From Paguma larvata (taxonomy: Eukaryota > Chordata > Mammalia > Carnivora > Viverridae): 64,000 bases of DNA. Both the position numbers and the translations under genes were made by a program. Shown here one piece after another: positions 5,811 through 52,167 of this stretch. Every line of letters begins with the position of its first letter. The stretch's first letter is position 1. Location: positions 9,405,370 through 9,469,369 of the forward strand of contig CM057831.1 of assembly GCA_030068075.1 (NCBI GenBank), in the 5' to 3' direction. Under the pieces are notes generated by a model, which made no database searches, was not told where the DNA came from, and worked only from the letters and a program-made list of their open reading frames with translations.

Positions 5811-7371
5811 ATACAGCGTTATGCCCCAGTGCCCCCTCCCACAGTAACCCTCCCCTACTAACCGGGGGAGTTAACCACTCTCCTAACACTCATATTAATC
5901 ACCCTCTTGTTTTGCTCTAGTTGGCACCACTTTAATGTGTCTCTGTAACCATGTGTTACCCTTTGCTTACACAGCTAGGTTTGTGCTTGCTACTCAGTTT
6001 TTCAAAACTAAATAGGATCTGTGATCTCTCCAATGCTTAACAGTGTTATGTTCAAGTTTTCCCAGTGCAGTGAACTCTGAGCAGATGCCTGTTATAAAAA
6101 CCAGGCCACAAAAGCATGTACGGAGTTCTCCCACCAGACAGGACCAGCCCTCTCCTAAAAGCCACTTTATTTTAGGCACTGAATTAATGGCGTACAAATG
6201 ACATGCACAGTAATGTGGAATTAGCATATGTCTTGATAGTTTTTTTTTTCAGGAAAGGATTTTCTGTGTGTGTGAAAAAGTCAACTGCTCACGCCCTTGT
6301 CTAACGGGGCTGTTTTGATCCCAGTTGTCTGACAGCGGGGACCTGCCCTCGTGTTTACAGGCAGAAAAGAAGCCCCAGGAGGGTGTGGGGAGAAGCAGAT
6401 TTGGAGGGTTCCCCAGGCCCCCTCCTCTCTTCCCTCGGGCCAGCCCTCACCGCGGTGGCTTTGGCCCACAGCTGCCCTAGCCCAGGGACCCAGTGGCAGA
6501 CAGAAACAGACCTACTTTGGTTTCCATGGCAACTGCAGGCATCGGGAGGCCAACCGAGTGAGCCGCAGCCAACGAGGCAGCTGGTTTGAAGGGTGTTGCT
6601 CTCTCTGCGGACCAGCAAGGCAGAACCACCAGGGACCAGAGGCAGCAACTGAGCCAGGAGGAGCCACAAGAGCTGGGCATATAGGGTCTACAGGGACCTG
6701 TGTGCACAGCTTGCACGTTTGCGGGGGCACACTCACGCACCCACACCCACCCACCTATCCGGGCACAGGCACCTGCAGAGAAATGGCCGTCCCTGCTCCA
6801 CTCCGTGCTCGCCAACTCAGGCACGTGTTCCCATCAAATACACTCGGGTTTAACATCCTGGACCATTTTCACAGTCAAAAATACATGCCCCTGCACATTC
6901 ATACGTAACGTGTAAGACGTGGACCCAGAAGCATCCCCGTTCGCCCCAACACGAGTCCTCTACACGCGGTCCCTCGCTCACAGACGCTGCGTACGATGCT
7001 CCCACCTCAGAGCCCCACGGACCCACGTTACGGGGAGAACCGCAGGCCCATGCTCGCCCGAGCACTCACAGGGACACCGCCCCATACATGCACGTGGACG
7101 CAGACTGGGACACCCGAAAGCTAAAACTGAGACGCCGAGGAGCCCCAGCTTTCTGAAGCGACTCAGAGACGAGACATGGCCCCACTCAGTGCTGTAGCGG
7201 CCTCACAAAACCCCAGAAACCACCCTCCAGGCTTGGCGCCTCATAAGCAGTGTCCACCGTCGAGGAAGGCCTTGAGTCTTCTCTGTTTCCTTACTCGGAG
7301 CAGTTCTTTTTTGTGTCCTCCATAAATGCCAAAAGGACAGAAACCTAACCATCTTGTGTCTCTCAGATTTG
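5811..7371. other. Intergenic DNA, nothing specific seen
   Basis: No gene supported. A 185-codon frame (6351-6908) is of low-complexity His/Pro/Thr composition over CA-rich DNA (CACGCACCCACACCCACCCA). Short AT-rich block at 5930-6100. Confidence 0.5.
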
Positions 7372-14170: not shown

Positions 14171-14514
14171 CCACCATTGCCCACTTAGCAAACCACGGCT
14201 GTAAGATCGCCCCCGCACCCCTACACCCTTCAGGACCCCCAACGGCACAGCACGTATGTCCCCACCCTTCAGCGTGATGTCTGAAAGAGTCAGCCTCCAA
14301 CTTACGCCTATAGCTCCTATCCCGCAGAAGCCCCCACTTCAACACAGTGGCCGCCTCCACCTCCTCCAGAAGCGCTCTGAGCATTCCCTCCTCTGGGCCT
14401 TTGCTCACCCTGTGCCCTCATCTGGAATCCCCCCTCCTGGTCCCTCCTTCTGCCCATCCAAACCTGAGCTCTCCTCCCCCATGAAGCCTCCCTGAACCTC
14501 CAGCCTGAGAAGCC

Positions 14515-15313
14515 TTGCTGCCCTGCTCACTGCCTCACCCACCAGGCACCCAGTACATACCACCTCGGGCGCTGTCTGTGCCTCACCCACGGGGCACCCA
14601 GTACACACCACCTCGGGTGCTCACTGCCTCACCCACGGGGCACCCAGTACACACTGCGTCCGGCGCTCTCTCTGCCTCACCCACGGGGCACCCGGTACAC
14701 ACCGCCTCAGGTGCTCTCTCTCTGTGCCTCACCCACGGGGCACCCAGTACACACCGCCTCGGGCGCTCTCTCTGCCTCACCCACGGGGCACCCAGTACAC
14801 ACCGCCTCGGGTGCTCTCTCTCTGTGCCTCACCCACGCGGCACCCAGTACACACCGCCTCGGGGGCTCTCTCTCTGTGCCTCACCCACGGGGCACCCGGT
14901 ACACACCGCCTCGGGGGCTCTCTCTCTGTGCCTCGCCCACGGGGCACCCAGTCCGCACCACCTCGGGTGCTCTCTGTGCCTCACCCACGGGGCACCCAGT
15001 CCGCACCGCCTCGGGGGCTCTCTCTCTGTGCCTCGCCCACGGGGCACCCAGTCCGCACCACCTCGGGTGCTCTCTGTGCCTCACCCACGGGGCACCCAGT
15101 ACACACCGCCTCGGGGGCTCTCTGTGCCTCACCCATGGGGCACCCAGTCCGCACCACCTCGGGTGCTCTCTGTGCCTCACCCACGGGGCACCCAGTCCGC
15201 ACCGCCTCGGGGGCTCTCTCTCTGTGCCTCGCCCACGGGGCACCCAGTCCGCACCACCTCGGGTGCTCTCTGTGCCTCACCCACGGGGCACCCAGTACAC
15301 ACCGCCTCGTGTT
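14515..15313. repeat. GC-rich minisatellite, 16 units of about 44-53 bp
   Basis: The unit core is CCTCACCCACGGGGCACCCAGT followed by ACACACCGCCTC or CCGCACCACCTC, then GGG(T/G/C)GC and a variable (TC)n(TG) spacer. I count 16 copies of CACCC(A/G)GT. Units differ at a few diagnostic sites and in the CT-spacer length. Because the array is GC-rich and almost free of stops, it creates open frames of 200-266 codons in several frames and on both strands; these are artefacts. Confidence 0.95.
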
Positions 15314-15846
15314 AGGTTCTGTCCCTTGTCGACAACCTTCCCTAGTGGTGGCAAAAGCCACATCTATCATCTCCCTCCCATCTCCCACTGTGGCCAGCAC
15401 AGTTCGGCATACGCAGTAGGGGTCAACAGAAAGCCGTTGAGTTCCAGTTGAAATGAAAGTGTTTCCAGGCACTGTCCTATTGAACACTGGATCCCAGCTG
15501 TGAGGAACAGACGGAACGTCCTGCCTGAACCTGGCTGCCAGGGACCAGGAGAGAGGCCAGGAGGCCTCTGTGCGTGTGGGGAGGAGGTAAGAGGGCAAGA
15601 ACAATTCAAACCACATAGAGTCCCCAGAAGGCCCAGCACCGGGGGGCGGGAGGGGCGGGCCACTCTCCAGCCAGGCCGGAAACGATCAGCTGTCAGGAGC
15701 AGGTGAGCCGAAAAGGGCAGCCGGGCTCAGGAGTCAGGACAGATCAGCTGGGACCTGCAAACCAGCCACTACCTACCTACCTCCAGGCAGTGCGACAGGG
15801 ACTGCGTGGGCTGTCACCAAGTGCCAGTCGACACCCAGGAAGGCTC

Positions 15847-28900: not shown

Positions 28901-31649
28901 AGTCAGATTTGGCAGCCAGAGGGAGGGCGGGGAGGAGGCTGGCAGGCACCGGACTTGGCCTGCTCCTCGCTCCTGAGAACTGAGCCGGGAGGAGGGGCAG
29001 GTCTGGAGAAGGCAACGGCAACCGCCGGCACCCCAAACCTGGTGCCCAAGGGGTTAACCCGGCCTCGCCTAATGGAGTAGGATGAGTGAGGAGTGGGCGG
29101 CGGGCTGTGGGGAGGGAGGGCGTCAGACTGTCTCAGTGGAGCCAGAACAAGAAAAGCACTTTCCTTTTCTGTCCAAACAGGCTGCTTTTTGCAAGGGAAG
29201 CTGGAAAGCACATTACAGGCCAGTAATTGATCCCCGGTTACTAGTCTAGGTTAACTTTGATGGCTCAGGGTCCCCCAGGTAGAGAAGCGGCTGGAAAAGC
29301 CCCAAACCCTTCACCATTCTTTGGACGGACTGAGAAAACATCTCTCTGCAGTTGAGTTGGGCTCCCATCCCCCCTCTGGAGCCACCAGCTCTCCACACAC
29401 CAGCAGACCCTCTGCCCGGGCTGGGCGCTTCCCAGAAGCCTGCCAGAGAGGGTGGGGTTCCGGCTGACAAGGGGCAACAGGCTGGGGAGGGGGGGGCACG
29501 CCGGCCTCTGTCAGGGGCAGGGGTGGGTTCTCCTCTCTTTCCCTCAAGCCCCCCTCTGACCACCCCAGGAATCCTGCTCCAGCCCCACCTCCTCACCACT
29601 AGGCTTGTCTCTCGTGTTGCCATGGTAATCCCTGTGGCTGCCCTGGATACCCACTGCTGCTCCAGAATTCTCTACTTAGGCAGGGCGGCTCTGCCCGCAG
29701 CCTGTTAGAACACCTCCCCTTTTACCATCACTGAGGCCAAAGCGTGAGGAGCTAGGGTATGATCACCAACACGTGGCCTGCAAAGTCAGACACCGTCTTT
29801 CCCTTAAGGTGAGTAGGGAGAGAGCCGGTGGGAGCCAGCCAGGATGTCCCAGGCTGGGGAGCGGCGGATCAGACTCCGCTCGGCCACCAAGGCTTTCCCC
29901 AGGCCAGAGGAGAGGAAGGACGGCAGCCTACAGAAATCCCTTCCTCCCGCAAGGAACAAGGTCTCCCAACTCAGCACTTAGGGGTCAAGGGACGGAAGTC
30001 CTCTTGGGGGACAGGGGGAGACAGAACTGGGGTCTTCGTGCCAGAGTTAAGAGCTAGATGAGGAGAGAGAGCTAGAAGTTTCCAGGAGAGCCCTTCTCCT
30101 TCACAGGACTCCATGGCTGGGTCTGCATTCAGGCAGAGAAGATTCTAGGTATTCCTGCAGTCCCCTCTGACGCGGGATGTCCCTGGGCTGACCCCAGGAG
30201 CCCTCTTGCTAATTCACCTCGGCAGGCACCAGCCTCGGGAGCTGGTAGGACCGCACGCCCACTTGCCCAGTCATTGTCTGGAGGGGCAGGACGAAAATTG
30301 CCAGGATTCAGGACTGGCACAGTCCAATCCAGGAATTACAGGGAGCTTTTGAGAAACCAGGCCCCCAGGGGCTTGGGGCTTTGTCCCCAACCCCACTAGA
30401 AAGAACACACGGCCTTCCTATTAGTTTGTAAATCAGGCCCAGATGAGCCGACTTCACTGTCTCCTACCTCATCAGCAGGGGACCAGCCTTTACCACAACC
30501 AGCTTCATCCACCACACCCGGCCTCTGCTCCCCAGCCCCAAGTGGCAAAGGGAGCTCTCCAGGCTCGGAGACCTGTGCGTGGATCTGGGGCCGCAGCCGT
30601 CTCTGCTGGCTGCCTTCGCCTTCCATACCTCCCCTAGGAACAGGAGACCCTCGGAACTATGCTCACCACGAATTCCAGTTTACTGGGGACAGTCCTGTTT
30701 ACACCTGTTGTCTCGGCATAATTATTAATAGCACATGCGTGCTCACGTGAACACACATACACCATTCACTCTCAGAAGTGTCCTAGTTTGGACAAGAAAA
30801 TAAATGGTTTCTCTAATCACAGGCAACTGCAAGGTCCCAGAGAGCCTGGGGAGAAAGTGGAGAAGCTCTCAGCGTAGAGACAAGCCACTCTCTCTCAGTC
30901 CCCAAGGAGAGTTGAAGCTACTGACTGAGCTTTCAGTCAGCACCAAGGGCAAAAGTCAGAGCCCCTCCTCTGGGCCAGAGCGCTGGCATCTCAAAAGTCT
31001 AGCGGGGAGACACCTGACACAAGGAACAGTAAAAAGGAAGATAGAAGAGCCAGTTCAGCAAAAAGTTAGCAGCCTGAAGGGAGGAAGATTCTAGCTTTGT
31101 GTCCAGCAAACGGCAACCGGGAGCAGTGTGTATCGGCCCAGGTTGCAGTTGGGACAGCCCCACCGAACTGGCTGCCCTGGGCTGCTCTGGGGTGCGTCCT
31201 CCGACCTTCCGAAAGGTCCACCTAGACTGCAAAGCCCCTCTCGCTTTACCTGCTTTCCCCCAGCCGACTCCCTAGCCTGAACTGCAAGATCAATATAGAC
31301 ATTTCGCAAGCTCCCGTCCCCAACCTAAGAGACGAAGAAGAGAAATCGAGAAATTGGAGCAGTCAGCCTCCAGGGTAGCAGAACTCCTGGATCCCTTCCT
31401 TTTGTGCTGTTACCTGATTGACGCAAGGCTCTTAGGGACCCCCGCTTCTCTCCACCTTCCTGAGTTGGGATTCCTAAGTTCAGAAGTTTAGAGACCACTG
31501 TGTTTGTAGGATGGGGTTACAGATATTGGGGACTTTCTATGTCCTATCGCTCAGCGAAGTCCATGTAAATTAGCTGCAAAGTACGCTACAAATGCAGACT
31601 GTCTACATCAGGAACCAGTAGTTCTGCATTCTGGGGACTCAGCAGCCAT
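28901..31649. other. Intergenic DNA, nothing specific seen
   Basis: Unique sequence following the AT-rich island. No gene, repeat array or SINE that I can support. Confidence 0.45.
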
Positions 31650-34665: not shown

Positions 34666-37420
34666 TAAATAGGAAGCACTTAATTCAGCCATTTTGCCCA
34701 TAGCAAGGAAGCCAGGGAAAACTCCATGAAGGAAACACTTGACTAGGCCCTGAAGGATGAGTAAGGTTCTGCTATGGCGAGAAAAAAAACAGAATAGCAG
34801 AAGCGGCTTGGAAAAACACAGAGGTCTGGACCAGTGGTGTTTGATCAGGGAAGTGAGAAGTCCAGAGATTCCAGGGAAGGGGTTGATAGGCCAGGTCCCA
34901 AAGGACCTTGACAGAATGCTGAGGAGACCCAACACATCTTGTAGATAAAGGCTTCCTCCTCAATCTGCCTCCCACGTGACCCTGGGGACATCCTTATCCT
35001 CAGTCTCTCCATCAATACTGGGATAATCATGCTTCCCTTACCCTGTTCCCATGGAAGCTCCAAACTCTTTGTCACTGGGACTGGGTTGGCTGGCAGAGCC
35101 ATCTCCATGAATATCTGACAAGAGGTTCATGTACTAATTAAGCATTCATCTAATGTTGCATACGTGACAATCAATTATTAAAGACTTCCACTAAGAAGTT
35201 TTGGGGAGCAACCGGAGGGCAATGAACCAACTTTGGCCTACTCTTACCCAGAGGAACCACCTCAAGACTCATTCATTCATTCATTCCGGACAAAGGGCAT
35301 GGACTTTGGAAGTTCTGTGGTCTTTAGCCTCAGTTTCCTTGTCTACAAAATGGAAATACTAGCATCAATGTGTTGAGTTTTTATGAAATTAATGTATAGA
35401 GAGTGCCTGGCCCACAGTGGCACTAAATAAAGGATAGCTATTAGTTCTGAGGTGTAACACCTTAGTCTAGGAGCTGGGGATTTGAAAATGAGTAAAAGGC
35501 CTAAGAAAATAAGAATATAAATAGGAATAAGAAAATGACTAAGAGTCTTGGCCACAGGACCTCATGATCCACAAAACAGCATATGAATGTTGACTACAAA
35601 ATGCCATGAAAACTCAGAAAAAAAGGCTGAATTGGCAAGCTGACCCCGCACTTACAGCAGCAACACAAGTTTGCATTGTGAGTCCCTAAGCAGAAGTGGG
35701 TAGGCAGGGCCCTTCTAGCCCCTGCCATATCCCCTACAGGTCTCCCAGCACCTCCAGTGTTTGCTTGGGTTTGTCTCTGTCAAAAGTTTCTCTAAACTCC
35801 ACACTGAAAGACTTTCTAATTTGTAACTCAGGAGTTAAGTCCTCTCCAGCATGAGACCATTGTTGGCTGAACCTTAGGAGAAGGAACGGGCCCAGAGAGG
35901 CCCCATTCCAGCCCCCTCCTCTCCTGCACCAAGAAAAACCAGGACAAGGCCGCCGTCCCATTACCTTACATGTTGAGAAAGTGTCAAAGAGCAAGGCAGT
36001 GGGGTTTCTAGGGGCTGAAGTTAACTCTACTGGCCCCAAACGCCAACTCCACAAGTAGGCAGTGGGGGTGATGTGGGTTTATCTCCTCTCGCAGCACGTG
36101 TAAAGGAGCAGTGGGAACTTTTGACGATAGTTTTCTCCGTGGGAATCAATGGTGGTACGTGATGACTAAGGAAGCTCGTTCGACCTTAAATACATTGATT
36201 ACAATATAAGATCTAGATGCAGGGAAGGAACAGTCCTACTGTATCTGATCAGAACACCCTGCACCTTAGGATCCAAGCCAGGTGCTGGACTTTAGAAGGG
36301 GCGGCAAACTGGAGTGACCTCACAGAAGATAGGATGGGACTCAAAGTCACAGCTGAAGAAACTAGACAAAAGTAAGATGCGCCCAGCAGCTTTCTTAAAA
36401 TTTCACATAACTGTGACAAAACTTCCCAATCATAAAGGAGGTGCCGCAGTTAAGGGGGAAAAGGTCTTCCTGTCAGCTACTCGAGCACAATGAATTCCAG
36501 AGATCATTCCTTCAGTCCCTGCTTCAGGCTCCTGTGATATTCCCCAACCTACACAGCACCTGCAGGAGGCCAGGTTCAAGAATAGTTCTTCTAGTCTATT
36601 CAGTCTGTCCCTGGGCTTCATTTATGACTCTAGGACCCGCCTTGAGGCCACCCTCAAAGGTTCACCGTGAACCTGACCACCTCAGTCCTCTCCTCTGGTC
36701 CTTCATCCCGTATCTCCCGCCGCCTCTTATGTCAGCCTCTGGCTGGGTTGTCATGCTTCGTTCTGCCGCTGGATTGGGGATGGAGGGGAGGGGAGAGGCC
36801 CTATGTGGAGTGTCTATAGACACAATGAGACCCTCTATATATAAAGATTAATTTTCTACTACCTTTTATGCAAAAAGCGTCTGCTTCCTTTCTGATATAA
36901 GTTTCTGTACAAACCCTCCTCCTATTACCTTAAATTTAAGACTCCAGAAGAGAAAGAAAAATTTATTCCAACACATTTAAAATGTTGTCAGGTAAAAGAG
37001 GGGTTACTAGTCTGTTTTTGTAAGCCCCAGGATGAAAAATTCAGACAAATGGTGAAGCCACAGGGGAACATAACTGCAAATAGCTAGAGTTGCACGAGAA
37101 TGGGCTATGTACGTCCCTGGAAGTGTTGACAGGGTAGAAAGTGTTCGAACGTGGGTAGGAGCGGCACTTCCAGAAACGTGACCTGCCAGGGGACGCCAGC
37201 AGTTGCGTGGACATGAGAATCAGGTCTCTTTAAGGCCCTAACTTTGATTCTAGGATTCGTATAATTAGCAGTGTATTTCCATAGGACCAAAGGTTGGGAT
37301 AGCCGTTGAACTAGTAAACTGATAGAAAATACTTTTAAATTAATTGGTGCGGGCAAAGGGTCATGAAGAGAAGTCCTTATGGTACCCTCTACCTCTGAGA
37401 TTCCTATTTTATGATTCCAG
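34666..37420. other. DNA upstream of the new gene
   Basis: Old repeat text at 34680-34960 (GAAGGATGAGTAAGGTTCTG, AGAAGTCCAGAGATTCCAGG), a (TTCA)n run near 35270-35285 and a reverse MIR. A promoter or 5' exons of the new gene may lie here, but there is no CpG island and I could not fix an exon. Confidence 0.45.
35290..35450 (-). mobile_element. MIR element (minus strand)
   Basis: GCCTCAGTTTCCTTGTCTAC, AAAATGGAAATACTAG and GAGTGCCTGGCCCACAGTGG are reverse-complement MIR text. Confidence 0.8.
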
Positions 37421-37465
37421 GTTCTGAAGAGTGTCAGCTACTGGCAAATTCATACAGCTGACAAG

Positions 37466-37497
37466 ATGCAGGTCAACCTTCTGTCTCAGGACAACTG
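37466..37497 (+). CDS. New gene, exon 1 (possible start codon)
   Basis: ATG in a good context (A at -3) followed by ten codons to the donor ACTG|GTGAGTGTG, exit phase 2. The same frame is open upstream to an AG at 37419-37420 (VLKSVSYWQIHTADK), so this may instead be an internal exon starting at 37421. The donor runs straight into a (GT)n microsatellite. Confidence 0.6.
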
Positions 37498-37539
<42 letters not shown>

Positions 37540-40500
37540 TAGAGATGAGGGCAGGAGACAACAGACGTTTTCTGAAGGGCGCACCATGCACACACACATC
37601 TCCCACACATGGTGGAGATCCAGAACTGGACTTGAGAAATGGCAGCAGAGATAAGATCCAACAATCTTGAGACCCGACCAATTCCATAATCGCCCCCTCC
37701 CCTAGCTGCTGGTCCCAGGAGTGTTGTTAGGAAAACAGCCACTTCCACCTCCCCTCCCAAAGCCAGTAGGGTGGCTTTCCTATTAAATGAGGAGGACGCT
37801 GGCAACTTAAGACACCAAACCTTAGAACCAGTGCCAATCTGCCAAAGTATAGGCACTCACTTGGGAGCTGGGGACAGAGGGCAGGGCCGAGCAAGGATGC
37901 TACTGCAATCACCACCCAGAAAGCCAGAAGGCCACAGTGCCCACCTTCAGCCATCTCTGTGAGTTCTGTGACTGTGGCTGAGTGTCCTCTGGTCACCCCC
38001 TACCCAGCATCCCCCTTCTCAGTCCTCTACGTGTCCCCAAAGCTCCTGCTCTCTGTTTCTCTAACACAGGGTTGAGAGGCAGAAGACACAGGACACTTCT
38101 TATCCCGGGTACTGCTTTCACCCAGGGTGGCTCAGACCTTAGTGGTTTAAGGGCACACCTCCCCACAGAGTTCTTTACACCTGCTCCCCCCCACCGCTGC
38201 AGTCTCCCAACATCACCCATCAGAAAAATGGCTCTTTAGCAGGTCCGTTCTCCATCCTGCAGGTCACCACACACCCTACCCTCCACTTCACACTGGCCAG
38301 TCCAAAATGTTCTTTCTTCGCCCGCTAAAAAGCTGCTTCTAAAAGGGCAGCAGCCCCTTCTCTCCCAATCTCCCACCCTTTAACCTAAAATGCTGAGTCT
38401 AAGAGGGCCACCCTGCCTCCCTCTCCCTGAAAGTGTCAGCTGCTGGGAAATCCCTGTGGAGGGGCTTCTACAGGCCCCATGGGGTATATCCCTACAGCAT
38501 CAAAGCGAGCGAGGAAACAAACCCGACTCAAGTCTAACCCTCTCATGCTCCTAGAGACTACTCTTTCCTCTGCCTCTTAGGAAACACAGACACAGCAACT
38601 ATACCAAGCCCTGGGGTAGGGCATCGCCCTATCCAGAGTTCGGCCCATCGACCGGTGAGTCCACCACCAACCAATGTCATCATAAGCCACCTCTCCCACA
38701 ACCACCACTCGTTTCAAGGCCAAAAAACAAAAAGAAAAAAAAAAAAAAGACTTGAAATGCTCATTTAAAATAACTGCTGTTGAAATGTCACATGCCCTTA
38801 AGTGCAGAGAAAGCACTGCACAATCACACACGCACATACACACACACACACACACACATACATACACACCCATCCTGCCCAGTTCCTACTGCTTGGGGCC
38901 TCAAATAAACTCAGTTTGGGTCCTATCCCATGGTTACACCAGTAACAGCCCAGCTCTGCCCTGAGGGGGTGGGGTAAGGGTAACGGTTAAGGGAAGGCTG
39001 CCATGAGGTACAAGAGGAAGACTCGCTGGAACAGGTCAACCACTACTCCTCCCCCTGCTCTAGACACCCCCTCTCCTGGGGACAGAAGACCCGGCCCACC
39101 TGACCACCCTGCTTCAAACAGCCCAGCCCTCAATCCCACCCCGCAAGACACGCTGGCTCTCCAAACCCAGCCGGGGAACCGCCATCCTGGTGTTCAGGTA
39201 AGGTGGGGAGTGAGATGCGAGTGCACCCAACAGGACACGTGCCCCTGAGACAGCGGAATGCTCGTGGAAATGTCTCAATGTGTGAAGCGCCTCCTCCATG
39301 CCAGGCACCATGCTGGAAACTTTGTCTCAGATCCTCTCCAGTCACCCAGAAAGAGAGTTTACAAATAAGGAAACTGTGGCTCAGAGAAGTTGGGGAACTT
39401 GCTAGAAAGTAGCACCTGACTACTCTCACTCTAAGAGAGCCATCCCCCACTGACTTCCCCAATTAAGATGGAGAGATCAGAAGGAACCCACTCGGGGGAA
39501 GCAGCAGCAGGCGGGTTGCTTTGCAGGAGTCAGAAGCCCAGGAGGAAATAGCCCCAGGAGATATTAAATACCGCCTGGAGCCCCTTCCCAAGGCTCCGCT
39601 CCAGTCACAACGCCCAAGCTACTTCAACAAGCACAGAAGGCCTCGGTGGCTCTCCTTCGGTACAACCTATGAAGAATGTTACAAGCCCGGGAGGATACAG
39701 CCTGTGACTTACCATGGGGAGAAGCCCTCCCATTCAGGTCAGACTTAGCCTGGTGGCAGACAAGGGTAACCGGATAGAGTGGCACTCTGTATAAACCCAC
39801 CTACCTCACCCTTCCCTGGGAGCACTCCTGTCCCCCTGCTGATCCCAGGGGTGGGAACCACCAGCCCAGGAGAATACAATAAGCAGTAAGGGCCCCAGCC
39901 TTGTCTCTTTAAGAGCCCTTCAGGCAATATTTGGCTACAAGGCCAGCCAGAAGCACTCTGGGAGGGGACCACCCCCACCACCCCATCCTAGCCTACACTC
40001 TTTCCTATTTAGGCTAGACCAATGAGCAGCCCTGTCGTCCAGGCTTTCAAAGCTCTCATGACCCAAAAAGGGGTGGGAGAAAACTCTGGATTCCATATTA
40101 AAGATTCTTTAGTTCTGGTCTTGGGGAGACAATCCTGGAGGTCCGACTGGCAGAAGAGGCAATGCTCTTATATTTGGGTCTATTTTTCCCATTATAAAAG
40201 GTTTGGTTCCATAGGACGAGCTGTGCAGAAGCCTAGGCTGGGGTCCAGGTCCACACCTTTACTTTCAAGACCTTCCGTCTCAAGACTTTCCCGCCCAGAG
40301 GAGACCCTCTGCATGCTTTCTTGCTCCCTTCAGGTGACACTACTCATCAGGTTTCCTTGCAGAGCCCTCTTCTTGGCCGGTCCCTGTTCCCAATTCACGT
40401 TCAGGGCAGAAAAATAGGACCAACAGTGCGTCCAGGCTACGTGGAGTACATGGGCCAATACCAGAGTGACTTCCAAGCCTCAGAGTGGAATCAAGTCCTC

Positions 40501-43309
40501 AAAACTGACCCAGACAAAAGAAGCCAGGGGATCCAGTGAGTAACCAGAACTGTTGGCAAGCTGCAGGGTTGCCGTGGGGAAGGGGCCAGAGGAGGGTTCT
40601 ACTGCCCAAGAGGAAGGTACAGACGGTCCCCGACTTACGATGGTTTCATTTACAATTTTTTGACTTTCCGATGGTGCAAAAGTGATGCACATTCAGTAGA
40701 AACCGTGCTTCAAATCATGCATCCGGATCTTTCCCCAGGCTAGTGCTACGCAACCCGGACCCCCTGGTGCCGCTGAGCGGTGGCAGCGAGCCGCAGCTCC
40801 CCGTCAGCCCCGCGATCACGAGGGTCCCCTGACAACGTTTCTGCACCCCTGCAGCCATTCTGGTTCACTCTCAGTACAGTATTCAGTACGTGACATGAGC
40901 ACTTTCTGATAAAACAGGCTTTGTTGCCCATCTGCGGGCTAACGTAAGTGTTCTGAGCACATTTAAGGGAGGCTAGGCTCTGCTACAATGTTCGGTAGTT
41001 CAGATGCATTAAATAAATGCATTTTCCACTAAAGATATTTCCAACTTATGATGGGTTTATGTAGACGTACCCCCATCATAAGATCTGTAATAATTGAGAA
41101 CTCAGTCTTCTGTCCAATTCAGACATGGCTATAGAAGGCAACAAAGCAAAGGACTAAACGTTTTAGAATCCTGGATCTCCAACTAGTTCAGATTCTTTTC
41201 GTCCTCACCTCACCCTAAGTTTTGGGCATGCCGCTCATAACTGGGGGTAAGTCTCTTCCCCTGTGCGTCTCTGGGAGACACAAGCTCTACCTGCAGGCCA
41301 GGAGGTAGAGCCGCCAGGCTTGTCTGGTACTCATGTTACAGAGAATCGGGCATTCCCCTTGCCCATCCTTGTCCTGGCTTCTCCCCTGTTAAAGCCTGCT
41401 TCTCCTGGAGGCCCGGAATGGCCCTCTGCTTCCCTCTGACTCACCCCTGAAAGGTTAGAAGGCCCAGCTCCAACGCAGAGCCAGGCACACGCACACAGTG
41501 CCACACAAATGTTACAGAAATGTGCTACTCCACAGGGGGAGAGGAGAGAATGACCCTCACTGGGAAGCCATGAGGGACGCGAGCCTAGCAAATTCGAAAG
41601 CTCTGTTCCCCCTTCCCCAACACACATACCTCCAAGCTCATTCCCAAGACCACATTCTCTGAGCCGAGCCTCTAGCTGCCTAGCAGGGCGTTCTAGAAAC
41701 GCTCTGCGTCGCCCTATCCTTTGGCTGCAGGCGTCGCGTCCTCTCTGCTGGGTCTTAGCATGATAACGAGGGAGTATGAAACAGAAACAGAGACAAAATA
41801 AATTAAAATTTTCTTTTCAGAGGAAATGTAAGTATGTATTCGACATTACCTGGAAGCGCCCTGCACAGTTTCGGCAGACACACACATGAAAAGCAAAAGA
41901 AAGCATGCAGATGGCCGGGCGCCCCTCTCTCTGGGATGCCTGGATCGGTTCACGGGTATAGGTCCCGACTTCTAGAGATGTTTTTACCCCACGCAGCAAA
42001 TACATCCAGGCTGTGCAGAAACTCACTGCCCCTGGCTGGCAGCCCACGACGCATCAGCGTCCGAAGGCGAAACAGCTGAAGCAGGAGAGGCCCATCCTGG
42101 GTAGGAAGAGCGCTGTCAACTTTGATGGAGACACACTGGCCAGGGTAAAGTGCCCAAGCTCTCTGTCAAGAGGTAATCCGCGTGAGGGCCCTAACTACTC
42201 CCTCGACCCAAGGAGGGGTGTGGGGCTAGACAGGGAACGAAGGGAAAAGCTTACCCTACCAGGACACCCAACCCCACTTGTCTTGAGAAATCCAGAAATT
42301 TTACTTTCCTGAATCTGCAACCACTTACGGACTCTGATATTTGTCCCTGACCACAGAGGTGAGGTACGTATGCACTTAACATATGCTTGACACGTGGTAA
42401 GTACTTTACAAAAGATAGCGATTAAAATCATCGCTATTATTATTTCCCCAGTCACGCATTCCTCTCTTCCCAGATGTCTTATCTACCTCCTCCCAACTCC
42501 CCGGGAAAAACAGTCAAGGGTAAGTGCCCCTCTAGCACGCTCAGGGTCTTCGAAGCCAAGTTACAAACTGAAACTACCAGCAAGCAATTCCTCCAGGACC
42601 GCAGAACTCAGCCCCAAATAGGTCTCCAAGACCCTCATCACAGAGGCTCTGAGAAGCCCCTGGTAAGAACTTCCGTTGTGGGCAGGGGACAGTGCTTGGG
42701 ACTCCCCCTTCGCCTCTCACCTTGCTATTGGGGTGAGGGTGGGTGGGGGGAGACCTGTAGGGAGAGGAGAGTCTGATGTTTAAAACCTGGATCTGTCTCC
42801 ACCTAGAGCAATTCTGAGCAAGTTAACCTCTCTGCACAAATGTTTTCTCCTCTGCCAAAAGAAAAAGGAAACAAACCTTGCTCACTAAGCACCCGACATT
42901 GCATTTTTATCTGTGACTCCTTCTAACTCCATAGCTGACAGACGGTGCTGAGCCTAACAGGCAGGGAGGGGAAGATTTACTCCTTTTTCAGCTGGCTGCT
43001 CTCTGTCCCCTCAGAAGAGTGTGGCTTCACAGGCACCAACTCAGGATCAAACTACCACCCGGATCTCCTACATGCCCTTGTTTTCTGAAAGGCTGAACCT
43101 CTGTAAGCCCAAGGTCAACAGCACCAAACGGGAGCCAAACACGATTTCTCTACTGAGCAAAGGAAAACACTCAGGTACAAAGGAAATTTGTCTTCCCAGA
43201 TACAATACTGTTTGCATATGGCAAAAAAAAAAAAAAAAAAAGTCTTGGGGCAGACATAATTTGGCTCCAGTCTGGCCCCATAATCTTTCTGCCTATTTTT
43301 ACAGACTAG
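37466..43309 (+). CDS. Unrecognised eight-exon gene, about 383+ codons, convergent to BUD13
   Basis: Eight plus-strand segments (37466-37497, 38581-38654, 39064-39197, 39527-39737, 40334-40535, 41997-42144, 42474-42662, 43015-43174) have canonical GT-AG borders. They join in exit phases 2,1,0,1,2,0,0,1 without one stop, about 1,150 nt. The predicted protein starts MQVNLLSQDNWKHRHSNY. It has no signal peptide or membrane segment, is basic and rich in Pro, Gln, Lys and Tyr, and carries short elements such as LSFGTTYEECYKPGR, RPGYVEYMGQYQSDF, GWQPTTHQRPK and TTTRISYMPLFSERL. Such scattered Tyr/Pro/Arg motifs recall sperm or ciliary microtubule-associated proteins (SAXO type), but this is a guess. 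From memory, mouse has an uncharacterised testis gene (4931429L15Rik) beside Bud13; I cannot verify orthology. The start may lie further upstream, because the first exon is open back to a possible acceptor at 37420. The 3' end is unresolved: a strong acceptor at 43304 gives an almost immediate stop at 43307-43309, and a weaker one at 43416 adds about 48 codons. Confidence 0.78.
37501..37538 (+). repeat. (GT)n microsatellite at a splice donor
   Basis: About 19 GT units in an uninterrupted run, starting directly after the GTGAG of the exon 1 donor of the new gene. Confidence 0.95.
38581..38654 (+). CDS. New gene, exon 2
   Basis: 74-bp exon. Strong acceptor (CTCTTTCCTCTGCCTCTTAG) and donor ACCG|GTGAGT. 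It completes the split Trp codon and reads KHRHSNYTKPWGRASPYPEF, then GPST. Exit phase 1. Confidence 0.75.
38829..38868. repeat. (CA)n microsatellite
   Basis: CA-rich run with a few TA interruptions in the second intron of the new gene. Probably length-polymorphic. Confidence 0.9.
39064..39197 (+). CDS. New gene, exon 3 (Pro-rich)
   Basis: 134-bp exon. Acceptor CTCCTCCCCCTGCTCTAG, donor TTCAG|GTAAGG. It encodes a proline/asparagine/glutamine-rich linker (DTPSPGDRRPGPPDHPASNS, then PALNPTPQDTLALQTQPGN). Exit phase 0. Low complexity makes it the least distinctive exon, but both splice sites are good. Confidence 0.72.
39260..39415 (+). mobile_element. MIR element between exons 3 and 4 of the new gene
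   Basis: CATGCCAGGCACCATGCTGG, ACAAATAAGGAAACTGTGGC and TCAGAGAAGTTGGGGAACTT are MIR text. Confidence 0.8.
39527..39737 (+). CDS. New gene, exon 4 (GTTYEECYKPGR)
   Basis: 211-bp exon. Acceptor GGTTGCTTTGCAG, donor CATTCAG|GTCAGA. It encodes EIAPGDIKYRLEPLPKAPLQ, PSYFNKHRRPRWLSFGTTY and EECYKPGRIQPVTYHGEKP. Exit phase 1. The sequence looks like ordinary conserved protein, with no low complexity. Confidence 0.8.
40334..40535 (+). CDS. New gene, exon 5 (RPGYVEYMGQYQSDF)
   Basis: 202-bp exon. Acceptor TTGCTCCCTTCAG, donor ATCCA|GTGAGT. It encodes SLQSPLLGRSLFPIHVQGRK, IGPTVRPGYVEYMGQYQSDF and QASEWNQVLKTDPDKRSQGI. Exit phase 2. Confidence 0.8.
40618..41092. mobile_element. Non-autonomous Tigger-like (MER-type) DNA transposon
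   Basis: Left end GTCCCCGACTTACGATGG and right end ACTTATGATGGG...CCCCATCATAAG are imperfect terminal inverted repeats. The interior has the AT-rich text typical of old non-autonomous pogo/Tigger copies, with a GC-rich insert near 40740-40850. It lies in the intron between exons 5 and 6 of the new gene. The exact family name is not certain. Confidence 0.6.
41997..42144 (+). CDS. New gene, exon 6
   Basis: 148-bp exon. Acceptor TTTTTACCCCACGCAG is chosen because it alone restores the frame from exon 5; the nearby AG at 42011-42012 would not. Donor GCCAGG|GTAAAG. It encodes KYIQAVQKLTAPGWQPTTHQ, RPKAKQLKQERPILGRKSAV and NFDGDTLAR. Exit phase 0. Confidence 0.77.
42474..42662 (+). CDS. New gene, exon 7
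   Basis: 189-bp exon, phase 0 on both sides. Acceptor TTCCTCTCTTCCCAG, donor CCCCTG|GTAAGA. It encodes MSYLPPPNSPGKTVKGKCPS, FEAKLQTETTSKQFLQDRRT and PQIGLQDPHHRGSEKPL. An internal GGTAAGT at 42519-42525 could act as an alternative donor, but it would leave in phase 1, which exon 8 does not accept. Confidence 0.77.
43015..43174 (+). CDS. New gene, exon 8 (TTTRISYMPLF)
   Basis: 160-bp exon. Acceptor CTCTCTGTCCCCTCAG, donor CACTCAG|GTACAA. It encodes SVASQAPTQDQTTTRISYMP, LFSERLNLCKPKVNSTKREP and NTISLLSKGKHS. Exit phase 1. Confidence 0.78.
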
Positions 43310-43416
43310 CCCAGCTGCCTGAGAGCCGGCTCGAGAAGTACTTTTGACAACAAGACCCAAAATTCCAAAAAAAAATAATTGGGAGGAAAAAAATGCCCAA
43401 ATAATCTATGCAAAAG

Positions 43417-43562
43417 TGCACAGTTGGGGACCTACGTATCCTAGCCTTAAAACTGAGGTCCCACCACAACTTCCTTACATCGTGGACTCAGCTTTCCCAC
43501 TGGGATTTCCCAGCCACGCCCCCAAAGACCCCAGCTCTTTGAAACGAACTGAGCAAGGGTGA
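43417..43562 (+). CDS. Alternative terminal exon of the new gene (weak)
   Basis: If the acceptor AAAAG at 43412-43416 is used, the phase-1 frame continues as HSWGPTYPSLKTEVPPQLPY, IVDSAFPLGFPSHAPKDPSS and LKRTEQG, ending in TGA at 43560-43562. The composition resembles the rest of the protein, which favours it. The acceptor has a poor pyrimidine tract, which does not. A donor-like AGG|GTGAGT overlaps the stop, so a further exon is also possible. Confidence 0.35.
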
Positions 43563-44439
43563 GTAACCTCTTTAGAAAGAAAGGATGCACTTTGAGTCTT
43601 AGAAGGTGAGTGTACCCCAGGATTTCTGAGGGAAAAGAGATCAGACTATTTCCCCCTAACTAATGACTTTTCTCAAGTCAGTACCATTGACTAATTACAT
43701 TCTATTTGAGCTACAGTGTCTGCTCACTACTGCTTTTTCTCCCTCTTTACATTCTCTGAGGTTATAATTCATATAAAAATTCACCTTTTTAAAGTGTATA
43801 TTCCAGTAGTTTTTAGTGCTGCTCACTGCCACTCAAGTCTAAACTTCAGGGTGGAGAAAGTGGTGCAGGAAAGGAAGGAGAACAAGAGGGTCTGAATTTG
43901 ATTGAAACAAACAAACAAAATCTTCCATGTAGAGAAAGTATTCCAAAGCCTAAGGGAGAATCCGATCAAAATCTAAATACCAGGTCTCTCTCTTAAAAAA
44001 ACTTACCATATTGAAAATAGGACTATGCTTCTGGTTTTAAGGTAGGGATAAGAAATGGAAGAGGCAACTGAATTTAGCCATCTCTCTTCTTGAGAGATGC
44101 TAAAACATGGATAAGACGCAGGGGCCTCCTTTCCTCGGTCAGGAAAAGGCATATCACACTGCCCTCTAGTAGCCAGCCTAGGAAATGACAGCCAGCCGCC
44201 TGAGGGACAGACTTGGAGGTCTCTGCCCTGGAGGACGTGCTGGGCTCACACACACAAAGGTAGAAAATCGGAAGGAGAAGGAATTCATAAATTTTCAACA
44301 AGGCCTACTAAACACAGAGCTCACCTACAACAGAATCTACCTACTTCCCCTCCAACTCGGTCTGTTTGAAAACACATAGATTCCTTTGTTAAGGAGGAAA
44401 AAAAATGTGGTGTAAGGTTTCCGAATTATCTGAGCCTGT
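43563..44439. other. Region downstream of the new gene
   Basis: AT-richer unique DNA. No clear AATAAA close to either proposed stop of the new gene, so its 3' end is open. No exon recognised. Confidence 0.4.
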
Positions 44440-49547: not shown

Positions 49548-49641
49548 TTACATATCCTCAACACTCCACTTGTAGGCAAGTTCCTCCACCGCCTTCTTGC
49601 TGGCAAGCCTGGCAAAGCGCTTCTGTTCAAATCCATTGGAT
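49548..49641 (-). CDS. BUD13: BUD13 final coding exon and stop
   Basis: The acceptor CTTGATTGCAG precedes 49641. The exon completes the split Arg codon and reads [18 protein letters not shown] then [12 protein letters not shown] and TAA (49548-49550). This is the exact C-terminal end expected of vertebrate BUD13. In another frame on the same strand a 108-residue open frame overlaps it and is a shadow. Confidence 0.96.
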
Positions 49642-52167
49642 CTGCAATCAAGAGACACTGGTCAGCCAGAATCCTGAACTGGACATTCATTTTTGAAAAA
49701 AGAAGAGTTGACAACCTAACGAATGAGGAGGAAAGTAAGGCGGTCATGTGAAAATATGTAAGACATACGCGGTAGAATCAAAAAGCCAAAACACATAATT
49801 CATCCTTTTATTAGTTCTTATTCAGACCCTTCTGCCAGTCTTTGACAACCGTTCCGAACATCTACCACTCTACAGGCCCAGCTCCGTCTCAGCCGAAGTC
49901 CACATCTTCCAATGTATCCATTCGTCACACAAACATTTGGTGGATTCTTACAGGCACCGCTCATCTAGGTGCACCGCACTGTACCGCACTTACTTCGTGC
50001 CTCGGTGTCACATGTTGGTAACTTGCAATATCTCAAATTTTCTCGTCATCTGTTACGGTGATCTTTAACCACTGATCTTTACCATAACTACTGCAAACTG
50101 TTTTGGAGTGCCACGAATCGCGCCCACAGGAGACGGCAAACTTAGGTGGTGAATGTTGTGTGTCTTCTGATTGCTCCACTGACCGGCCACTCCCCCGTCT
50201 CTCTCCCTCTCCTCCAGCCTATTCCCTGGGACACAGCAATACTGAAATCAGGCCAGTTAATGCCCCTACAGTGGCCTCTAAGTGTTCAGGCAAAAGAAAC
50301 ATCTCGCTTTAAGTCAAAAGCTAGAAAAATGATCAAGCTCAGTGAAGAAGGCAAGTTGAAAGCCAAGAGAGGCCAACAGCTACGCCTCTTGCACCAGTCA
50401 GTCAACTTAAACGCGAAGGAAAAGTTATTGAAGAAAGTTAAAAGTGCTACTCCAAAGAATATACAAACGACAAAGAAGCAAAACAGCCCTATTGCTGATA
50501 TGCAGGAAGTTTGAGTGGTCAGGACAGGGGATCAAACGAGCTATAACGTTCCTCTGAGCCGAAGCCTACTCCAGAGCGAGGCCCTGACTCTCCTCAATTC
50601 TGTGAAGGCTGAGAGAGGGGGGGAAGCTGCAGAAGAAAGGTTGGAGCTGGCAGAGGTTGTTCGTGAGGTTTCAGGAAAGAAGTTGTCTCCATAACATGAA
50701 AGTGCAAGGCGAAGCAGCAAGTGCTGATGGAGAAGCTGCAGCGAGTTGTCTAACAGATCCAGCAAAGACAGTCAGTGACGGTGGTCACACCAAACAGCTT
50801 TTCAGTAGAGATGAAATGGCCCCCCACTGGAAGAAGATGCCATCTAGGGCTTTCATAGCTACAGAGGGGAAGTCAGCGCCTGGCTTCGAAGTTTCAGAGG
50901 ACAGGCTCACTCTCTTGCCAAAGGGCCAATGCAGCTGGCGACTTTAAACTGAATTTCTTGAAAGAGCTTGTATTCATTGCCTACACTTCGTCACTTTTCA
51001 TTCACTCCTTAACACAAGGGAACCTAGCTTTTGTCTCTCATGCCACAGAGTTAGCTCTCTTTCAGGCCACTGGTGACCTTCCCTATTGTCAAATCCAGTG
51101 CTTTCTCTCTCTCCCCAAGTCAGTCACCAGGTCCTGCCACCTCATCCCCTGAACACTCCCCTGCAGTTCGGACCTCCACTTCCTTTCCCCTGACCTACTG
51201 CAGTAGCCTTTTATCTTGTCTCTCCACTTCCACACTTGTGCCTTTCAAAGGCTTCCTGTTACTGCCTTAATGACTCGTCTATCTAACACAAAAATCCTTC
51301 GGGGGGGCTTTGCCTTTAGGGTGAAGACCACACTCATCGGAAATGCTTCTAAAGCCTGCTGTGCCCAGGCCCCTGCTTACCTTTCCAATCTGCCACACAC
51401 GCTCCACTTCACACTTCACGCTACCCGACAACAGCAAACTGCTGATGACTGCCCCCCCATAACACTATGACGCCCCACACCCTTATGACTTCGCACTTTA
51501 ACCTCCTTCCTCTTCTTATGTTGGCTGGTGACTGACATCCCTGAAGACTAAGCTCGCGAATATTCTAGGAAGCTTTCCCTAACCGCACTCTCCCATGGCT
51601 GAATTTATCCTACCTTTGTGCTCCCAGAGCACCTTGAAAGTCCTCTATAGTAATACTTAGCAAGTAGTATTGAAATTACTTGTCTTTCTGCTCTAGATAG
51701 AAAGTAAGTTCCTAGGCGTAGGGACTATGACTACCTGTGAGAGCCTAGCACCTGGTACACGGCTGCTTCAAGTAATCCCATCTTTGCTAAGTGTTACTGA
51801 ACCGATGGAGAGAACCGGCTTCCCTCTTTCCTAACGCCTTCCCTAACGGATGAGAAGGATGAATAACAGAGTGTTTTAGGAAGAAGGAAGCTTACTACAA
51901 ATGGTTCCATTTCTAACCTTAGAAGCATGCAGGGTATTCTAGAGCACCAAGGAAACCACTGTCTTTTGCCCTGGGGAATAAGTACTTAAGAGAACGAACA
52001 CGAATATGATCATACAGATGAAGGACATATGAATAACAAACCAAACCCCACAGAATAAAAAAAACACACCCTAAGAGAACACACAGTAGAAAAGACTTGG
52101 ACTAGAGAATCAGGAGCCCAGGAGTCTTATAATGTTTTTATTTTTTTTTTGAGAGAGAGAAAGAGAC

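What the first reader, a model, noticed from the sequence alone, without database searches (positions are those of the whole stretch)
37421..43562. An unrecognised multi-exon protein gene convergent with BUD13
Eight plus-strand segments with canonical splice sites join with phases 2,1,0,1,2,0,0,1 and give about 383 codons with no stop. Chance agreement of eight consecutive phases and good acceptors is very unlikely. I know of no protein-coding gene annotated at this place in human, immediately 3' of BUD13. From memory, mouse has an uncharacterised testis gene there (4931429L15Rik). It may be a mammalian gene lost in some lineages such as apes.
Basis: partly seen in the sequence, partly recalled or inferred. 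Interest (0 to 1): 0.88.

Follow-up and report, generated by a model that had tools for sequence, protein, structure and literature searches.

The report
Fast-evolving orphan gene beside BUD13
This stretch of a carnivore genome holds a multi-exon protein gene, the counterpart of the uncharacterised mouse gene 4931429L15Rik, which likely works in developing sperm, changes fast outside two short motifs, and appears damaged in some cats, dogs and seals.

Summary
Eight plus-strand exons with GT/AG borders join with the phases claimed (2,1,0,1,2,0,0,1); a short ninth adds one codon and a stop: 384 codons. The gene is not unknown. 52 predicted protein entries (41 named mammal species, isoforms included, 3 entries unnamed) match it, among them mouse LOC74361 and a Peromyscus entry named 4931429L15. 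Of their 256 matches in the window, 236 overlap these exons, 226 in the gene's frame, none on the minus strand. No second copy was found in its genome, no Pfam family and no solved relative of weight. New here: an upstream first exon about 7.6 kb away with an RFX X-box-like site beside it, a fossil exon, predicted disorder, and two constrained motifs (aa 81-106, 341-366) in a protein otherwise changing near the neutral rate. The window's own copy has lost the C-terminal tail; felid, canid and seal models suggest damage elsewhere. Most likely a spermatid protein that works through linear motifs in the sperm tail; expression and function are untested. The window is not domestic cat. No monkey or ape was named among the hits, but ape loss could not be tested.

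The parts
29616..29629 (+). RFX X-box-like 14-mer GTTGCCATGGTAAT next to the predicted first exon
   Evidence: one mismatch from GTTRCCATGGYAAC; 2 such sites in the window, 0.06 expected; with the looser pattern 10 found, 5.55 expected. Role inferred.
29642..29808 (+). predicted 5' exon (start uncertain), donor GTGAGT, phase-compatible with exon 2
   Evidence: matched by goat P0006, raccoon dog P0014, Lycaon P0048/P0049 and Mastomys P0037 models (E 0.002 to 7e-5); sequence
37421..37497 (+). exon 1; ATG at 37466, MQVNLLSQDN-W
   Evidence: acceptor; donor and frame; N-terminus shared with hyena P0001 and, less closely, mouse P0045
38581..38654 (+). exon 2
39064..39197 (+). exon 3 (open here; models suggest frameshifts in cat and Lycaon)
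39527..39737 (+). exon 4
39527..39604 (+). constrained motif 1, aa 81-106, ESEAQEEIAPGDIKYRLEPLPKAPLQ
   Evidence: 22 of 26 identical to goat (omega-like 0.22), 14 of 26 to mouse
39848..39943 (+). fossil exon 4b: coding in ground squirrel, tree shrew and lemur models, in-frame TAA (39887-39889) here
   Evidence: P0012, P0024, P0025
40334..40535 (+). exon 5 (four residues near its start absent that 13 of 19 relatives in alignment A1 have)
41997..42144 (+). exon 6 (fastest-changing of exons 5-8 against felids)
42474..42662 (+). exon 7
43015..43174 (+). exon 8
43045..43122 (+). constrained motif 2, aa 341-366, DQTTTRISYMPLFSERLNLCKPKVNS
   Evidence: 23 of 26 identical to goat (omega-like 0.16), 12 of 26 to mouse
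43305..43309 (+). coding part of exon 9: Asp codon completed, TAG stop where hyena, otter, fox and felid models have Gln
49548..49643 (-). last coding exon of BUD13 (convergent neighbour), ...ELAYKWSVEDM*
   Evidence: recognised from recalled BUD13 motifs

Best explanation
The segments are a protein-coding gene, related along its length to mouse 4931429L15Rik, whose 384-residue basic product is predicted to be disordered and likely made in spermatids under RFX control, where it would act as a flexible sperm-tail linker that binds partners through two short conserved motifs. Shown here: exons, frame, relatives, no second copy found in the genome, and stronger conservation of the two motifs than of the rest. 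Predicted: disorder (AlphaFold2 on the otter ortholog) and the upstream first exon (from relatives' protein models). Inferred: RFX control (an X-box-like site by that exon), spermatid expression (recalled origin of RIKEN 493x clones in testis libraries) and the sperm-tail role. How likely: real conserved coding gene about 0.97; testis or motile-cilium expression about 0.7; sperm-tail linker about 0.4.
For: Gene: phases and open frame; 52 entries, all with an in-frame match, 226 of 256 matches on the exons in frame; in the whole genome all 5 matches of the hyena protein lie at this locus. Regulation: X-box-like site at 29616-29629 against 0.06 expected per window, beside an exon supported by goat, canid and Mastomys models; the N-terminal Met-Ala-Thr of the Mastomys model is compatible with ATGGCAAC, the second half of an X-box. 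RFX2 sites in mouse testis are 14-bp inverted repeats near transcription starts, and 80 of 138 direct targets changed in the Rfx2 mutant are cilium-linked (PMC4498915, passages). Protein: pI 9.86, 58% disorder-promoting residues; otter model mean pLDDT 46.8, 0 residues at 90 or more and 3 at 70-90. Motifs, goat against window: omega-like 0.22 and 0.16, against 0.64 to 0.83 for the other blocks from exon 4 on.
Against: No expression data were available. The X-box was noticed after the fact and is seen in this one genome only; a second match at 6520 has no link to the gene, and with the looser pattern the window is not unusual (8 of 100 shuffles reach it). No match of weight to any solved chain for the window, profile, mouse or Bos query, so no deposited sperm doublet structure was found to hold it. 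Felid exons 5-8 change at 1.3 to 1.5 times the felid intron yardstick (lion 1.34, clouded leopard 1.46, Geoffroy's cat 1.42; range for lion 0.76 to 2.25), compatible with loss of constraint. In the goat comparison aa 12-80 give 1.17 and aa 1-11 give 3.12 (1 of 11, a different start in that model). The motifs are weakly kept in mouse: 14 and 12 of 26. Two conserved motifs do not name a partner.
Confidence: 0.45

Rival explanations
1. The gene is real but decaying in carnivores: it lost importance, and this copy is intact mainly by chance.
For: Felid-window change at or above the intron rate; the window lineage has more private changes than lion (30 against 13 of 216 sites, p 0.014) and tends to have more than hyena (33 against 20 of 299, p 0.098); the C-terminal tail is lost here; the cat model reads exon 3 in two frames, 7 of 9 felid entries start in exon 4 or 5, canid models skip, shift or lack exon 3, and grey seal and Lycaon models lack exons 4-6.
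Against: Under neutral change over about half the felid distance (0.05 per site) 0.102 of 1000 simulations stay free of stops, and 0.018 would stay free of frameshifts on an assumed indel rate. All eight introns keep GT and AG. Motif 2 keeps 25 of 26 residues of hyena and 24 of 26 of lion. Models may hide or invent damage, and missing exons may be isoforms (a dog entry, P0018, has exons 4-6).
Confidence: 0.3
2. It is a basic nuclear or chromatin protein of spermatids rather than a tail protein.
For: High pI, net charge +21 in the window protein, predicted disorder and fast change also fit sperm nuclear proteins.
Against: Only 3 cysteines and no run of Arg longer than two in the window protein, pI nearer 9.2 in mouse and rat, and the X-box points to the cilium programme.
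Confidence: 0.15
3. The joined frame is a chance product of a non-coding transcript facing BUD13.
For: No reads were available; no Pfam or structure match of weight.
Against: 0 of 20000 random joins open; 52 entries from 41 named species match, 226 of 256 matches on the exons in frame.
Confidence: 0.02

Closest known systems
Mouse 4931429L15Rik (LOC74361) and its predicted mammalian orthologs
   Same: Similar over most of the length; matches fall on the window's exons; no entry carries a function, and nearly all names are 'uncharacterized' or 'hypothetical' (one deer entry is labelled CEP57)
   Different: 34% identical to mouse over 95%; murids have a different C-terminus; this copy lacks the tail after exon 8 and four residues in exon 5
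RFX2-driven sperm flagellum and cilium genes (PMC4498915, passages)
   Same: 14-bp X-box-like site beside the predicted first exon; no CpG island there (observed/expected 0.24 to 0.41)
   Different: RFX binding and testis expression not tested; found only in boreoeutherian mammals in these searches, unlike core cilium genes
Sperm microtubule inner proteins
   Same: Works-like comparison only: basic, predicted to lack a folded domain, likely extended
   Different: No sequence match of weight to any solved chain, with mouse and Bos queries included
Protein phosphatase 1 regulators with an RVxF motif
   Same: RVKF or KVKF in motif 2 of six mouse-family rodent entries (P0037, P0042-P0046)
   Different: RVxL, RLxL or KVxL in the other 38 of 44 entries whose motif 2 was found, of 52 searched

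Membership tests
4931429L15Rik ortholog group | similarity over most of the protein, above any other locus in the genome | tested here: met
   this locus; of 11 places at E up to 10, 7 are here and the other 4 have E 0.255 or worse (best candidates only are scored)
4931429L15Rik ortholog group | matches on the same exons in the same frame | tested here: met
   226 of 256 matches on the exons in frame, none on the minus strand
4931429L15Rik ortholog group | same neighbourhood as the mouse gene | tested here: inconclusive
   BUD13 beside it here; the mouse gene lies in a chr 9 interval with Cadm1 and Cep164 (PMC9024903, passage); mouse Bud13 position only recalled
RFX2 target genes of spermiogenesis | X-box near the transcription start | tested here: inconclusive
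   site present one base off consensus, but the start itself is inferred from protein models
RFX2 target genes of spermiogenesis | RFX2 binding and testis expression | not testable with these tools
   no ChIP or RNA data
Sperm microtubule inner proteins | present in a solved doublet microtubule | tested here: not met
   no match; only a long bacterial chain with no stretch passing on its own; no positive control was run
PP1 regulatory subunits | conserved RVxF docking motif | tested here: not met
   6 of 44 entries, mouse-family rodents only
Any Pfam family | match above the gathering score | tested here: not met
   window protein none; among 20 members five families with one member each, best E 0.0062 (hedgehog, 16.2 bits against a cut-off of 25), the others 0.11 or worse

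The most novel reading that the evidence does not exclude
A new mammalian protein family without any known domain: an RFX-switched, disordered sperm-tail protein held under selection only at two short motifs, free to change elsewhere and repeatedly broken or discarded (cats, dogs, seals, perhaps all monkeys and apes), so that one locus would record how sperm-competition pressure rises and falls among mammals.
Probability: 0.25. Interest if true: 0.62.

Novelty: new member of a known kind. Interest (0 to 1): 0.42.

Why it matters
It turns an anonymous mouse RIKEN gene into a defined gene of boreoeutherian mammals with mapped exons, a candidate promoter switch, two testable motifs and candidate lineage-specific damage. 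If the sperm role holds, it adds an uncharacterised sperm gene for which no monkey or ape protein was named in three searches, and which work that starts from human genes would miss.

Tried and rejected
Pfam, PDB by sequence and by profile: nothing of weight. A Bos match to the bacterial protein CagY (E 6e-7) was set aside as a repeat-type match: 0 stretches passed on their own. Paralogs: weak places on contigs 6 and 4 of the genome have E 0.255 and 3.21 genome-wide; read alone 26 matches hit the first, best E 1.9e-7 for 2.5 kb, 31% identity, keeping VKLC but not the PLF or KPK of motif 2, so I judged it chance; two places on contigs 13 and 7 (E 3.5, 6.5) were not fetched. PP1 docking: not conserved. 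Fold search was not run because the model is of low confidence. Viral contigs scan: one stretch matched a pattern, none encodes a relative. A bacterial promoter and terminator scan of 43000-43600 has no bearing. True dN/dS could not be computed: no relative's DNA was available, so protein models that read into introns served as a small neutral yardstick (Felis and Lynx, 89 of 106 residues; unnamed entry P0050, taken as bovid because its exon 8 equals goat's, 19 of 41). Those stretches were picked by eye, which favours alignable parts, and the substitution settings and indel rate are assumptions. Papers: seven searches; 4931429L15 occurs in one paper, PMC9024903 (one passage seen). PMC2864566 and PMC4498915: passages only; all others only in listings. 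PMC2864566 on human unitary pseudogenes holds no 4931, BUD13 or 11q23 in its main text.
Full report
What is there. Exons 37466-37497, 38581-38654, 39064-39197, 39527-39737, 40334-40535, 41997-42144, 42474-42662 and 43015-43174 have AG before and GT after (the first exon's acceptor is before 37421, so 45 bases are 5' untranslated) and join with phases 2,1,0,1,2,0,0,1. A ninth exon at 43305 completes one Asp codon and stops: 384 aa. BUD13 lies on the minus strand, its last coding exon near 49.55 kb and other exons near 60.2, 60.6 and 63.1 kb (recognised from recalled BUD13 motifs).

It is not chance. 0 of 20000 random joins of equal pieces from 30-45 kb were open. A search of 5.8 billion proteins with the joined protein gave 37 entries (E up to 1), and a 20-sequence profile gave 52 (E up to 10, weakest 6.5e-17): 49 named entries from 41 species, isoforms included, and 3 unnamed ones. 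They span carnivores, horse family, ruminants, narwhal, ground squirrel, chinchilla, pocket gopher, kangaroo rat, mice and voles, rabbit, tree shrew, mouse lemur, hedgehog and mole. P0045 is Mus musculus LOC74361 and P0040 is named RIKEN cDNA 4931429L15 gene. All 52 have an in-frame match in the window. Of 256 matches 236 overlap the nine exons, 226 in frame, 0 on the minus strand; of the 20 others, 5 are the upstream exon, 3 the exon 9 tail, 1 a read-through of intron 6, 2 in intron 1, 1 at 35.9 kb and 8 scattered. Ten Markov-shuffled windows gave 13 matches in all, best E 6e-4. In the whole 2.44 Gb genome no second copy was found: with the otter protein 7 of 11 places up to E 10 are here and the other 4 have E 0.255 or worse.

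The gene is larger than the finding. Models from goat, raccoon dog, Lycaon and Mastomys place an exon ending at 29808 with donor GTGAGT. Joined to exon 1 it would be untranslated; joined to exon 2, as in the raccoon dog model, it stays in frame and would give an alternative N-terminus. At 29616-29629 lies GTTGCCATGGTAAT, one base from a full X-box; 2 such sites occur in the window against 0.06 expected, the other (6520) unconnected; with a looser pattern 10 against 5.55. RFX2 sites sit close to starts of testis genes (PMC4498915, passages). Between exons 4 and 5 a fossil exon, coding in ground squirrel, tree shrew and lemur models, is still readable with an in-frame TAA.

The protein. Pfam gave nothing for the window protein and only single-member chance-level matches among 20 members, best E 0.0062 and below its cut-off; no solved relative of weight. 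It is basic (pI 9.86), 44% P, Q, S, T and K. AlphaFold2 on the otter ortholog with 33 sequences gave mean pLDDT 46.8 and one nine-residue helix: predicted disordered.

Selection. Without relatives' DNA I compared exon identity with the identity of intron stretches that some models translate. Goat against window (yardstick: intron 8 of unnamed entry P0050, 19 of 41): motif aa 81-106 22 of 26 (ratio 0.22), motif aa 341-366 23 of 26 (0.16), other blocks from exon 4 on 0.64-0.83, aa 12-80 1.17, aa 1-11 3.12 (a different start in the goat model). Against mouse the motifs keep only 14 and 12 of 26. Felids against window (yardstick: Felis intron 6 and Lynx intron 8, 89 of 106): exons 5-8 ratio 1.34 in lion (0.76-2.25), 1.46 in clouded leopard, 1.42 in Geoffroy's cat; exon 6 2.2-2.3, exon 8 0.65-0.87. 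The window lineage has more private changes than lion (30 to 13 of 216, p 0.014) and not clearly more than hyena (33 to 20 of 299, p 0.098). So the motifs are held and the rest is nearly free; in this lineage constraint may be weak.

Signs of damage. Here, exon 9 has TAG where hyena, otter, fox and felid models have Gln, removing 23 to 46 residues by comparison with otter and hyena, and exon 5 lacks four residues that 13 of 19 relatives in A1 have. The Felis catus model reads exon 3 in two frames; 7 of 9 felid entries start in exon 4 or 5; the Lycaon model reads exon 3 in another frame, fox and raccoon dog models skip most of it and the dog entry lacks it; grey seal and Lycaon models lack exons 4-6, which the dog entry has. 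These are inferences from protein models, which may be isoforms, not from DNA. Among 53 listed entries the only primate named is Microcebus, also when the lemur protein was the query; names inside clusters are not all shown, so absence in monkeys and apes is suggested only.

Species. Felis catus is 136 of 181 identical over exons 4-6, hyena 263 of 340 and otter 260 of 375 overall. The window is thus a carnivore outside the cat family, probably feliform; not identified.

Verdict. A real, fast-evolving, uncharacterised mammalian gene, already predicted in many relatives. Function is inferred: likely spermatid expression under RFX and a sperm-tail linker acting through two motifs.

Noticed in passing
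window 35892-35996: The N-terminus of a ground squirrel model (P0012) matches here (E 0.001), a possible alternative first exon; no good donor was seen by eye in the window.
   Followed up: partly
window 6520-6533: A second X-box-like site, GTTTCCATGGCAAC; what lies beside it was not examined.
   Followed up: no
window 14468-15685: Long open frames on both strands made of a repeat-like sequence (THGAPSTHHLG...).
   Followed up: no
window 38072-38296: Two stretches of intron 1 match a Lycaon model (P0048), read as an extra exon in that isoform; the window has in-frame stops there.
   Followed up: partly
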